The translations under genes and the position numbers were made by a program. A model generated the notes under the pieces. The model ran no database searches. It was given only the letters and a program-made list of their open reading frames with translations, and was not told the DNA's origin. From Fimbriiglobus sp. (GTDB lineage: Bacteria > Planctomycetota > Planctomycetia > Gemmatales > Gemmataceae), in assembly GCA_025351325.1 (NCBI GenBank), contig JANXWE010000232.1, positions 1 through 36,420 of the forward strand: 36,420 bases of DNA, read 5' to 3'. This document shows, in pieces, positions 10,660 through 32,423 of the stretch (position 1 is its first letter; each line of letters opens with the position of its first letter).

Positions 10660-11319
10660 ATGGTCAGCGCCCTGACATTCACTGAGGTCGGGGGGCACCG
10701 ACAAAACGAAGATGCTGCGATCGTTCAGCAGCATCCAGCAGATCCGACCGTGTGGATTTGCGCGGTCGCCGATGGACAAGGAGGACAAGCGGGTGGTGGC
10801 CCTGCAGCCCGACTCGCTTGCAAGGCAACGATAGATGCAGCGGCAAAATGCGACCCACCGAATTTGCTGAATCCGGCGGTGTGGTCGAGCATTCTCAGAA
10901 CGGCGGATGAAGCCGTTCGACTCGACGCAGAGGCTGGATACACGACGTTGATCGGCCTGTGCGTGAATGCGGATCGAATCGTCGGAGCTTCGAGTGGCGA
11001 TAGTGCGGCACTCCTAGTGAATGCGGAAGAGGAAACCAAGCTGACTTTCAGCCAGCACAAGAATCCTCCCATCGGCTCGGGTGGGGCATTCGCGGTTCCG
11101 TTCATGAAACGCGTTCGGACGCCTTGGCAACTGCTCGTGATGACCGACGGGGTGTGGAAATACGCCGGATGGGGAAAGATCACTGAGACAGCCCTGCGTG
11201 AACGGGGGTCGTCCCTGATCGAGGAATTGCAGAAGGCCGCCCGGCTGCCCGGAAGCGGAGAATTCCAAGACGATTTTTCGATTGTTCTGTTGGCGGATGA
11301 AGGCGACGCGATTGGTTGA
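10660..11319 (+). CDS. PP2C-type protein phosphatase between rpoB and rpoC
   Basis: A 219-aa metal-dependent Ser/Thr phosphatase domain of the PP2C family, cytoplasmic (no signal or membrane span). The metal-site acidic residues are all visible: GHRQNEDAAI (Asp18), AVADGQGG (Asp38-Gly39), SSGDSAALL (Asp114), LLVMTDGVWKY (Asp163), EFQDDFSIVLL (Asp204/205). It is therefore likely active, and close to a minimal domain in length. Start ATG 10660 has a perfect aggagg at 10646-10651. It sits between rpoB (126 bases before) and rpoC (42 bases after), all on one strand, so it is probably co-transcribed with RNA polymerase genes. Its substrate is unknown; planctomycetes have many Ser/Thr kinases. Confidence 0.9.
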   Translation: MVSALTFTEVGGHRQNEDAAIVQQHPADPTVWICAVADGQGGQAGGGPAARLACKATIDAAAKCDPPNLLNPAVWSSILRTADEAVRLDAEAGYTTLIGLCVNADRIVGASSGDSAALLVNAEEETKLTFSQHKNPPIGSGGAFAVPFMKRVRTPWQLLVMTDGVWKYAGWGKITETALRERGSSLIEELQKAARLPGSGEFQDDFSIVLLADEGDAIG

Positions 11320-20151: not shown

Positions 20152-21387
20152 TCAGCCAATCTTGGACAAGCGGCCCAAGAACAGAACCGTGTTCGAGGGA
20201 ATATGGCGGATGGCGAACAGGAACGGCCGATCCGCCCGGAAGACTTTCGGCTCGACCGGGATCTGGACAGAAGTCGCCCCGACGATGACGCCCGTCGCGG
20301 CGGCGGCTTCGGTGCCTTCCTCGTTCACATCCACGAAGGCCTTGTGGATCACGGCCGAAACCGAGAGCGCTTCGCGGCCGGAGTGCATCCCGGTCAGGTC
20401 GGCTTTCTTGTCGTCGAACACGTCCTTCATCCCCAATGCTTGCAGCGGCTCCCTCAGGCTGGACTCGGTTTCGACTTTGAACTTGGGCAACGTCAAATCG
20501 ACGGTGATTCTCGGTTGCAACGCCTTGACCGTCTCCGCGATGGCCGCCCCGCTCAGCTTCTTCTCCAGGTCGGCAAACCCCTCGGCTTTACGCGGCAACC
20601 AGACGAGCATCGAGGTTTCTCGACCTTTGTAGGGCAGCTCGATGGCTTGGTAGTCCGGGGTTTCCGCGTAGCTCATCGCGGCGTGGCGATACATCAACGG
20701 AATCTCGTGTTTCGCGCCGCCGATGTGGAACGGTCCCGCTTTCGTCTGCGACTTTTCGAACGGGACTTCCCAAGTTCCTTTGAAGTAGATGGCGTTCGTC
20801 AGCACCAACCGGGTGAGCGCGGTCACTGCCCCCATGGGAATCAAGTTCTTGATCTTGTCGTGAGTCTCTTTCTCGACCCAGGCGTTGATGATACCCCGGG
20901 CCGCATCTGGCATGGTGAAGTCGGTGTCGATCAGTCCTGCGCCGTAGTTCTCGTGGGTGGTGGTCAGAAATTCTTTCCGCCACGGGTACCCTTTCGTGCC
21001 CCAGAGCGCATTGGCGACACTCAGTTCGTAGCCCCGTCTCACGGCGGGGACTTTCTCGTTGTTGAGTGCCGCCATCATCGTCTTGAAGCCACTGTGGGCC
21101 AGTTTCGCTTCGACGGGTAGGTGGAGAACTTTGAGCATTTGGGCCAAGGTATTGCCGTTGGCTCCCACGCTGGTCATGGCGAGTGCCGCTTCGACGCTGA
21201 AGGGGGAGAAAAAGACGTTGTCCTTGGTCGATTTCAGTTGGCCGTAGAGTTCGCCCGCGAAGGCATTGTTGCCCTCGGCGATGCTGAACGGTTTGGGTTC
21301 CTCCGGCTTGTTCGCGCGGCCGAGTGAGTATCCCAGTGGAATGGCTGCAGCGGTGGCCAAGAAGTGGCGACGGGTTGGCGACATCAT
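20152..21387 (-). CDS. Serpin-family protease inhibitor with Tat signal
   Basis: A 411-aa serpin. It starts with a twin-arginine export signal (SPTRRHFLATAAAIPLGYSLG), so it is probably exported folded. Serpin landmarks: NVFFSPFSVEAALAMTSVGA, ANALWG, LTNAIYFKGTWEVPF, the hinge NEEGTEAAAATG (355-366), and the C-terminal FRADRPFLFAIRHIPSNTVLFLGRL. The hinge has small residues at P12-P9 and Thr at P8, which fits an inhibitory, loop-inserting serpin. Counting from the hinge puts P1-P1' near Thr372-Ser373, suggesting an elastase- or subtilisin-like target, but this is a rough guess. Two adjacent ATGs (21387, 21384) are possible starts. Divergent from the next gene. Confidence 0.93.
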   Translation of the reverse strand: MMSPTRRHFLATAAAIPLGYSLGRANKPEEPKPFSIAEGNNAFAGELYGQLKSTKDNVFFSPFSVEAALAMTSVGANGNTLAQMLKVLHLPVEAKLAHSGFKTMMAALNNEKVPAVRRGYELSVANALWGTKGYPWRKEFLTTTHENYGAGLIDTDFTMPDAARGIINAWVEKETHDKIKNLIPMGAVTALTRLVLTNAIYFKGTWEVPFEKSQTKAGPFHIGGAKHEIPLMYRHAAMSYAETPDYQAIELPYKGRETSMLVWLPRKAEGFADLEKKLSGAAIAETVKALQPRITVDLTLPKFKVETESSLREPLQALGMKDVFDDKKADLTGMHSGREALSVSAVIHKAFVDVNEEGTEAAAATGVIVGATSVQIPVEPKVFRADRPFLFAIRHIPSNTVLFLGRLSKIG

Positions 21388-29851: not shown

Positions 29852-31282
29852 TTAGCCCCGTGAGCCATGGCGGCGGTAGTGGCGGAACAGATTCAACGCA
29901 TCCCGGAGTTGATCCGACTCGGAACCGTTTTCGCCGAACTGATCCGAGCCGACGTAAATGCGATCGCCACTAAACGACCGACGACCGTTGAGTTGGACGA
30001 TCGCCAGCCCTTGCGGATGGGCGTTCGCCGGGACGTCTTTTTGCGAAAAGATGATCGGTGCCAGCGGTTCGCTCAGAGTGCCATCGCGGGCCAGTCGCAG
30101 GGTATGCAACTGATTACCCTGAGGGAACGAGGGATCCGTCGACTGGGTGACGGCGAACAAGAATTTGCCCGTCGGGTCGAGCGCGATCTCGAACACGAAT
30201 GTCTGCGCACCACCGGGGGTGCCACGCGGGCCGCCGAGCTTGAGTTCTTGAATTTGAACCGGATTCAACGGGTCGGCCAACGAGAAGAAGCTTACCGAAT
30301 CGGTGACGGTATTCGACACGTAGAGCACGCGACCATCCTTGCTGACTTGGCACCAGCACGGGGCCGCACCAGTATCGGCAGCCGTGCTCACGTAGTTTGT
30401 GCGCCCGGTTTCGTCGTACGTGAAGACGCCAACTTGGCCGGACGAGGCAAAGCCGGTGTAGACAATGTTCAAACTCGGGTGACTGGCCGCGCCCAATAGC
30501 ACCGGTGCGCTTGTCCCCGCACTGGCCGGCCCACCCGGTGCAGCCGTGAGGGTGCCATCGGCGTTGATCCGGAACGTGTTCACCGTGTTGCCACCCGCCG
30601 TACCCTGAAAACTCGCCACTTCGACGAAGAGGAAGCGGGCGTCGCGTGAAACCAACGTCTGGGTCACCAAGGTGCCGACCGGGAATGTGACGGTGGAATT
30701 CGCAATCCGGTCGAGGCCACCGTCCCGGTCGATGGTGAACGCGGTCACGCTGGGCGCCGTCGTTCCATTGACTCCCGCCGCGGCATCACCACGGTTGCCG
30801 ATGTACAAAGTGTTGCCGGCGATACCGATGCTGTCCGGTTGATCGCCACCGGAAGCAAAAGTCCCGATCAATTGCAGCGAGCCATTCCGTTGGATTCGGA
30901 ATGCCGAGACGTTGTCGCTCCCTTGGTTCACCGCGTAAAGAAACTTGCCATCGGCGGTGGCTTGCACTTGCTGGTCGCCGTCATCTGGGCCGACGAGCTT
31001 GGGGATGTTCAATTGCCCGGTTCCGCCCGTGGCGAACGATCCGATGCGAGTGAGGTCACCGGTGCGGGCATCGCGTCGGAAGGCCAACACCGCGTTGCGT
31101 CCCTCTTGCGGGTTGTTCGTCTCGGTGTAAACAATGGCGACATCGCTTCCAGCGGGGCGTTCGAGCACGCTCCCGGCGTTGAGCACGGCCGGCACGGCTC
31201 GCTCATCGAGCGGCTCCAAGCCGAGCAAGGCGCGGGTCACGGGCGAACATCGATTCGTGGAAGAAGAGCTGAGCCAATTCAT
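29852..31282 (-). CDS. Lactonase-type beta-propeller protein, exported
   Basis: A 476-aa seven-bladed propeller of the lactonase/YVTN kind (6-phosphogluconolactonase-like). After SPVTRALLGLEPLDERAVPAVL, which holds the planctomycete LE..R.VPA sorting motif, come repeats such as VQATADGKFLYAVNQGSDNVSAFRIQRNGSL, QVSKDGRVLYVSNTVTDSVSFFSL and LDPTGKFLFAVTQSTD. The motif suggests export, so an intracellular sugar-lactonase role is unlikely; a surface binding or scaffolding role fits better. ATG 31282 was chosen because gaggaa sits 8 bases upstream; the longer reading from 31327 lacks this. Divergent from the sigma gene. Confidence 0.87.
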   Translation of the reverse strand: MNWLSSSSTNRCSPVTRALLGLEPLDERAVPAVLNAGSVLERPAGSDVAIVYTETNNPQEGRNAVLAFRRDARTGDLTRIGSFATGGTGQLNIPKLVGPDDGDQQVQATADGKFLYAVNQGSDNVSAFRIQRNGSLQLIGTFASGGDQPDSIGIAGNTLYIGNRGDAAAGVNGTTAPSVTAFTIDRDGGLDRIANSTVTFPVGTLVTQTLVSRDARFLFVEVASFQGTAGGNTVNTFRINADGTLTAAPGGPASAGTSAPVLLGAASHPSLNIVYTGFASSGQVGVFTYDETGRTNYVSTAADTGAAPCWCQVSKDGRVLYVSNTVTDSVSFFSLADPLNPVQIQELKLGGPRGTPGGAQTFVFEIALDPTGKFLFAVTQSTDPSFPQGNQLHTLRLARDGTLSEPLAPIIFSQKDVPANAHPQGLAIVQLNGRRSFSGDRIYVGSDQFGENGSESDQLRDALNLFRHYRRHGSRG

Positions 31283-31517
31283 CGGGAAACTTCCTCGTTG
31301 CGGGGGACAATCCAACACGGGACTCATTCCGCGTGTTACGGTGAGTTGGTCGCTCGAGTGACGTGGAACTTACACGTCTCGAAGAAAATTCTGGCTGCGA
31401 GCACAATTTCAAAAATTGTTTTAGCCGGCTGTAAGGAGACCCGCAGTCGAGCGACTAACGTACCAGCGGATGCCGGATCAGGATGACACCGGAGTTCGAA
31501 GTCGATCAGGAGCGGTG

Positions 31518-32120
31518 ATGATGGATGTGAAGGTGCCACGAGGCGGGCCGATCTTGGACAACGGCATCGATCCGCAGCAGTGGTTGGATCGGCACGCTGA
31601 TTTCCTCTACCGATACGCGCTTCGCAAAGTGGGGCGGGAGGATTTAGCTGAAGATCTGGTCCAAGAAACTCTGCTTGCCGCATGGCGGGGCCGGGAACGA
31701 TTCGCTGGCCGCGCGAAAGAACGGAGCTGGCTCACGGCCATCCTGAAGCGGAAAGTCATCGACTGGCTCCGTCGCACCATCCGTGAGCGGAAGAATTCGG
31801 CCAGTGACGTCGATCGTCGGATCGATGGGTTGTTCACTCGATCCGGAAAATGGCGGACATCTCCGAAACGTTGGTCATCGGATACGCCGGAGTCGGACAC
31901 GGATCGATCGGAATTCTGGGGCGTCCTCCACGGTTGCACCGACAAATTGCCCGCCCGGTTGCGGGAGGTGTTTGTGCTCTGGCATCTGGACTAAACTCCG
32001 GGCGACGAAATTTGCGAAACGGTGGCCATCACTCCGACCAATCTCTGGGTGATGTTGCACCGGGCGCGTCTTCGCATGTGGCAATGCTTGAGCAAAAACT
32101 GGTACGGTCTCGATCCCTAA
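31518..32120 (+). pseudogene. ECF-type sigma factor with in-frame TAA in region 4
   Basis: A sigma-70 family ECF factor of the planctomycete type. Residues 1-158 are open: region 2 reads WLDRHADFLYRYALRKVGREDLAEDLVQETLLAAWRG, SWLTAILKRKVIDWLRR, then the linker and the start of region 4 (GCTDKLPARLREVFVLWHLD). A TAA at 31992-31994 interrupts it. The same frame stays open for 41 more codons to TAA 32118 and encodes the rest of region 4: TPGDEICETVAITPTNLWVM followed by LHRARLRMWQCL. The stop most simply arose from GAA. Without readthrough the -35-binding helix is lost, so the factor should be inactive. Start ATG 31518 (or 31521) follows aggag at 31508-31512. An intact anti-sigma-like gene follows. 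Confidence 0.85.
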
Positions 32121-32141
32121 TTTTTAGAAAGCGAATCTGAC

Positions 32142-32423
32142 GTGTTGATCTCCTGCCGTCGGGCGACCGAACTCACTTCCCAAGAATTGGACACCGAATT
32201 GAGTTTCCACAGGCGATTCGTGCTTGGTGCCCACCGTTTTGTGTGCGGGGCATGCAGACGCTTCCGTAAGCAATTGGTCGACATCGACCGTGCCTTGGAA
32301 GAGTTCTTGAACGATCCAACCGGCCCGGCCGACGTACAGATGACCGACGAATCGAAAACCCGGATCCGAGAAGTGTTGAAAAGTGCGACGTCGGATGATG
32401 ACGCCAATCCGATCGCCTACTGA
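32142..32423 (+). CDS. Zinc-binding anti-sigma-like protein
   Basis: A 93-aa protein of the short ZAS-like type that follows ECF sigma genes in planctomycetes. It has ISCRRATELTSQELDTELSF at the start and HRFVCGACRRFRKQL in the middle, giving the HxxxCxxC zinc motif, then a helical tail. There is no membrane span, so it would hold the sigma factor in the cytosol. GTG 32142 is the start, 21 bases after the sigma tail, which indicates one transcript. The gene looks intact although the sigma gene carries a stop codon. Confidence 0.8.
   Translation: MLISCRRATELTSQELDTELSFHRRFVLGAHRFVCGACRRFRKQLVDIDRALEEFLNDPTGPADVQMTDESKTRIREVLKSATSDDDANPIAY

What the first reader, a model, noticed from the sequence alone, without database searches (positions are those of the whole stretch)
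31518..32423. ECF sigma factor with one in-frame TAA but an otherwise intact region 4 and anti-sigma partner
The frame is open on both sides of TAA 31992-31994 and encodes the expected helix-turn-helix after it (NLWVMLHRARLRM). The simplest history is GAA to TAA. Intact codons downstream and the intact zinc anti-sigma-like gene mean either a very recent loss, a sequencing error, or use of stop-codon readthrough to make a small amount of full sigma.
Basis: seen in the sequence. Interest (0 to 1): 0.58.

Follow-up and report, generated by a model that had tools for sequence, protein, structure and literature searches.

The report
Recently broken sigma factor gene
A bacterial gene-switch protein (a sigma factor) has a premature stop in its DNA-reading end, most likely a fresh loss-of-function mutation in a dispensable local regulator; related bacteria have broken the same gene independently, at other places.

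Summary
An ECF sigma gene (31518-32120, +) has one in-frame TAA at 31992-31994; the frame then runs on through an intact helix-turn-helix to 32117. A small zinc-type anti-sigma gene (32142-32423) follows. The best reading is a recent nonsense mutation, not programmed readthrough. Five of five close homologues have Glu at that column. The codons after the stop are about as conserved as those before it. No suppressor tRNA was seen. Other copies of the family carry their own single internal stops elsewhere: TAG in the sister orthologue, TAG and TGA in two more (4 of 98 class-wide matches). Two more widespread ECF families gave 0 of 300 listed. Positions and stop codons differ, which argues against a conserved recoding site; the family looks prone to loss. 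A sequencing error cannot be excluded, because this is a 382-contig draft and no reads or sister strains could be examined. The more useful by-product is a conserved promoter, TGTAAG-N16-CGACYAA. It lies in front of the sigma and, divergently, in front of a beta-propeller gene. In this genome the exact 16-base-spacer form was found only at those two places. The sigma therefore looks like an autoregulated local switch whose wiring is still intact.

The parts
31518..32120 (+). ECF sigma factor gene, interrupted; start ATG 31518 (ATG 31521 and an upstream in-frame ATG 31470 are alternatives), proper stop TAA 32118-32120
   Evidence: AGGAG-like ribosome site before 31518 (sequence)
31992..31994 (+). 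in-frame TAA; the column is Glu in the five relatives aligned
31995..32117 (+). 41 codons after the stop: recognition part of region 4 and C-terminal tail, still conserved
32142..32423 (+). small soluble-looking zinc-type anti-sigma gene, 93 aa, C-X25-H-X3-C-X2-C
31430..31458 (+). predicted ECF promoter of the sigma operon, TGTAAG-N16-CGACTAA, perfect match
31346..31374 (-). divergent predicted ECF promoter of the beta-propeller gene, TGTAAG-N16-CGACCAA, perfect match
29852..31327 (-). divergent 491-aa beta-propeller protein (Pfam Lactonase PF10282), the likely target gene; syntenic in G013 and G036

Best explanation
This is a recent nonsense allele of an accessory ECF sigma factor. When intact, the sigma (region 2 plus region 4) is held by the small zinc anti-sigma encoded next to it and, once released, transcribes from TGTAAG-N16-CGACYAA promoters: its own operon and the divergent beta-propeller gene. 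The TAA cuts the protein after residue 158, inside region 4 and before the recognition helix, so the product should not read the -35 element and the local switch should be off. The anti-sigma and both promoters have not yet decayed. Shown: the stop, the conserved coding after it, the anti-sigma motif, the promoter pair, the independent stops in relatives. Inferred: loss of function, the regulon, the recency, and that the allele is real and not an assembly error.
For: Sense codon (Glu) at the column in 5 of 5 relatives aligned. Amino-acid identity after the stop is as high as before it: to G013 70% against 66%, to G003 71% against 63%, to G036 61% against 54%; to G001 it is lower, 56% against 63%; 3 of 41 residues after the stop are unique to this copy, against 26 of 143 before. 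Sister orthologue G013 (98/88 support) has its own TAG 8 codons further on; G380 has TAG at the start of region 4 and G284 TGA in region 2: 4 of 98 class-wide matches have an internal stop (stops located), against 0 of 300 listed matches of two other ECF families, Fisher p 0.0035, or 0.014 leaving the window's own stop out. Phylum-wide, a second tandem copy in G681 is broken too. Both promoters are perfect.
Against: No decay is visible after the stop, which is also what functional readthrough or a base error would give. G001 is less alike after the stop than before. The control ECF families are found in more genomes (265 and 385 of 397, against 91), so the higher stop rate here may only reflect dispensability. 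No reads, sister strains or expression data were available.
Confidence: 0.75

Rival explanations
1. The TAA is a sequencing or assembly-consensus error (or a minority strain's allele) in a draft genome, and the sigma is intact in the living organism.
For: Genome in 382 contigs, so probably a metagenome-assembled or draft genome; one substitution is enough; everything around it is undamaged.
Against: Only 1 of 55 region-4 domain matches in this genome has a stop, so errors are not rampant; the orthologue in G013, on a 1.2 Mb contig, is broken independently, which raises the prior for a real loss.
Confidence: 0.17
2. The stop is read through at a low rate and full-length sigma is made in small amounts, as a way of damping an autoregulated switch.
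For: Codons after the stop look constrained; anti-sigma and promoters intact; other orthologues also carry single stops with open frames after them.
Against: Positions and stop codons differ between copies (TAA, TAG, TAG, TGA), so there is no conserved recoding site; no tRNA with anticodon TTA, CTA or TCA among 49 tRNAs of G000 or 77 of G013 (neither list is guaranteed complete); release-factor domain genes are present. The stop of G284 lies already in region 2.
Confidence: 0.05
3. The truncated 158-residue product is itself used, for example as a decoy that binds the anti-sigma or core polymerase.
For: Region 2 is intact and the stop falls late.
Against: The sister orthologue is cut 8 codons later, G380 about 18 codons earlier (my count on the printed alignments) and G284 within region 2, so no common truncated form is kept; the codons after the stop would not stay conserved for long if only the fragment mattered.
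Confidence: 0.03

Closest known systems
RpoE2-HrsE of Haemophilus influenzae (ECF group 13; PMC7907618, sections 22 and 24 and passages read)
   Same: ECF sigma followed by a small cytoplasmic anti-sigma with the motif C/H-X23-26-H-X3-C-X2-C; sigma acts on neighbouring genes
   Different: Neighbour genes are msrAB and a transporter there, a beta-propeller protein here; that sigma hardly controls its own promoter, whereas here the promoter pair predicts autoregulation; here the sigma is interrupted. Sequence relationship to RpoE2 was not tested.
TIGR02943 (Sig70_famx1) ECF sigma factors
   Same: Read-through protein exceeds the curated cut-off
   Different: One in-frame stop; as encoded, the 158-residue part falls below the cut-off (116.1 bits)
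Ordinary bacterial pseudogenes by one nonsense mutation
   Same: Single stop, otherwise intact frame, accessory regulator, intact copies in relatives
   Different: The same gene is broken independently in several relatives

Membership tests
ECF sigma factor (TIGR02943 type) | Region 2 and region 4, score over the family cut-off | tested here: met
   Met only when the TAA is read as X (165.1 against 162.2 bits; PF08281 32.6 against 25.7); not met by the encoded 158 residues alone
ECF sigma factor (TIGR02943 type) | Transcription from a specific promoter with core polymerase | not testable with these tools
   Promoter pair predicted only
Soluble zinc anti-sigma (ZAS) | C/H-X23-26-H-X3-C-X2-C motif (as given in PMC7907618) | tested here: met
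   C5-X25-H31-X3-C35-X2-C38; NF052368 over cut-off
Soluble zinc anti-sigma (ZAS) | Binds zinc and inhibits the partner sigma | not testable with these tools
   needs protein work
ECF group 13 (RpoE2-HrsE, Neisseria SigE) | Sigma clusters with that group in a tree | not tested
   No named group-13 sequence was fetched; only the anti-sigma motif agrees
Programmed stop-codon readthrough gene | Stop at a conserved position in orthologues | tested here: not met
   Stops at different columns; 5 of 5 relatives have Glu at the window's column
Programmed stop-codon readthrough gene | Suppressor tRNA or reassigned stop | tested here: not met
   None among 49 and 77 tRNAs (lists may be incomplete); no other region-4 domain with a stop in either genome
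Pseudogene | Relatives have an intact frame at this site | tested here: met
Pseudogene | Loss of function and of expression | not testable with these tools
   needs reporter or proteome

The most novel reading that the evidence does not exclude
This sigma family is kept in a low or revertible 'off' state by recurrent nonsense alleles: the stop alleles are selected while promoters, anti-sigma and downstream codons are kept, so that readthrough or reversion can bring back the autoregulated local switch. The recurrence in sister orthologues would then be adaptive, not drift.
Probability: 0.05. Interest if true: 0.7.

Novelty: new member of a known kind. Interest (0 to 1): 0.3.

Why it matters
As it stands it is a small case of regulator loss caught early: the sigma is broken while anti-sigma and target promoters are intact, the order one expects, since losing the anti-sigma first would leave an autoregulated sigma unchecked (inference). 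The recurrent breakage in relatives marks the family as dispensable. The conserved TGTAAG-N16-CGACYAA promoter pair gives a concrete, testable target set for this sigma.

Tried and rejected
Programmed readthrough at a conserved site: rejected, the stops differ in place and codon. Altered genetic code or suppressor tRNA: not supported. Two flagged copies proved not to be premature stops: G345 and G720 end there; in my own slightly extended extraction G256 likewise shows only its end. All 20 flagged control matches were stops at the ends of the match, outside the core. RF1 could not be confirmed by its tripeptide with my simple search; RF2's SPF was found (motifs recalled). Viral contigs gave only remote matches. 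Comparison with solved structures gave general ECF sigmas and nothing for the anti-sigma. Broad paper searches listed no paper on a nonsense-interrupted sigma of this kind, judging by titles and abstract starts; only PMC7907618 and PMC6527743 were opened, in passages and, for the first, two sections. A regular-expression scan for ECF promoters with guessed hexamers found almost nothing; the element was seen by eye in the printed upstream regions and then tested.

Full report
Observation. The TAA at 31992-31994 is real in the given sequence and in frame. The interrupted gene is an ECF sigma factor, 31518-32120: Sigma70_r2 before the stop, Sigma70_r4_2 across it, and TIGR02943 over its cut-off when the stop is read as X. 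The 41 codons after the stop match ECF profiles alone. The anti-sigma gene 32142-32423 passes NF052368 and has C-X25-H-X3-C-X2-C. The window is a whole contig of a 5.09 Mb, 382-contig genome, 96% complete, so it is probably a metagenome-assembled or draft genome. By gene content it looks planctomycete (recalled, not from a call).

Is it more than chance or local damage? In G000, 1 of 55 region-4 domain matches has a stop inside, this one; in G013, 1 of 71, and it is the orthologue. Of the tRNAs scanned, 49 in G000 and 77 in G013, none has a stop-reading anticodon; Rfam rows were 51 and 74, and for G013 only 150 of 264 candidates were scored, so the lists may be incomplete. Release-factor domain genes are present, 4 per genome, one in each with SPF.

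Relatives. The first search gave G013 (65% identity, one TAG), G001 and G003 (intact) as nearest. In the tree of 33 copies, G000 and G013 are sisters (98/88), then G001 and G003. The divergent beta-propeller gene is next to the sigma in G000, G013 (70% identity) and G036 (61%), which supports orthology; it was not found in the stretches taken for G001 and G003. At the window's stop column 5 of 5 aligned relatives have Glu. G013's TAG lies 8 columns further on.

How often is this family broken? In the family 17 matches were found in 95 genomes, 2 with stops. In the class, 98 matches in 397 genomes, 5 flagged: G000, G013, G380 (TAG at the start of region 4) and G284 (TGA in region 2) are internal; G345 is a proper end. 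In the phylum search 41 rows from 392 genomes, 3 flagged: G000 again, G720 a proper end, and G681, whose second tandem copy has a TAG early and loses homology after about residue 142. As control, two other ECF families over the same 397 genomes: the 150 rows listed for each (more matches existed but were not listed) held 20 flagged rows, all fetched, all with the stop at an end of the match. Fisher p for 4 of 98 against 0 of 300 is 0.0035; leaving out the window's stop, which is why we looked, 3 of 97 gives 0.014. The controls are more widespread (265 and 385 genomes against 91), so the excess may only say that this sigma is dispensable.

How old is the stop? After the stop the copy is about as conserved as before: identity 70% against 66% to G013, 71% against 63% to G003, 61% against 54% to G036, but 56% against 63% to G001; third-position changes dominate. 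Only 3 of 41 residues after the stop are unique to this copy. Even if all three were decay, the 95% upper bound is 7.75 changes, roughly 0.08 per replacement site (my estimate of about 93 such sites), against a silent divergence of about 1.5 to G013 (near saturation). So the stop is young, or not real, or not fully effective; these data cannot separate the three, but the scatter of stops over the family speaks against a designed one.

What the system does. Upstream of the sigma there is TGTAAG-N16-CGACTAA (31430-31458) and, on the other strand in front of the beta-propeller gene, TGTAAG-N16-CGACCAA (31346-31374). With up to two mismatches the 16-base spacer form is found within 300 bases upstream in 14 of 33 copies on the sigma side and 11 of 33 on the other strand; ten other spacer lengths give 0-2. 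The pattern was derived from six of these 33 upstream regions, so those six are not independent; most distant copies lack it. In whole genomes the exact GTAAG-N16-CGACYAA form occurs in G000 only at these two places (2 other hits have other spacers), in G001 only at its own two, in G013 at its two plus one elsewhere; of the two genomes without the sigma, G065 has one such hit and G002 none. The likely design is therefore an autoregulated sigma with a zinc anti-sigma that drives one neighbouring beta-propeller gene. The nearest described pair of this layout that I read is RpoE2-HrsE of Haemophilus influenzae (PMC7907618, sections 22 and 24 and passages), which answers oxidants; whether this one does is unknown.

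Verdict. A real and correctly read interruption, best explained as a recent nonsense loss of a dispensable local sigma factor (0.75), then error (0.17), then readthrough (0.05). Ordinary in kind; the recurrence in relatives and the promoter pair are the parts worth keeping.

Noticed in passing
window 31346-31458: Pair of divergent perfect ECF-type promoters TGTAAG-N16-CGACYAA, conserved in relatives; predicts the sigma's regulon.
   Followed up: yes
L314 (G681:C105:14054-14479): Tandem second copy of the sigma with an early TAG and lost C-terminal part beside an intact copy.
   Followed up: partly
G013:C1:649098-649125 (in L316): A third exact promoter-like element in G013 away from the sigma locus; possible further target.
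   Followed up: no
L222, L225, L234 (G013) and L191 (G000:C143): Dense tRNA arrays with low-scoring tRNAs, one with a four-base anticodon call (tgct); possibly mobile-element borne.
   Followed up: no
window 10660-11319: ORF reading like a PP2C-type phosphatase (by eye) between rpoB and rpoC, an unusual place.
   Followed up: no
window 20152-21387 (-): Serpin-like protein by eye, a protease-inhibitor family uncommon in bacteria.
   Followed up: no
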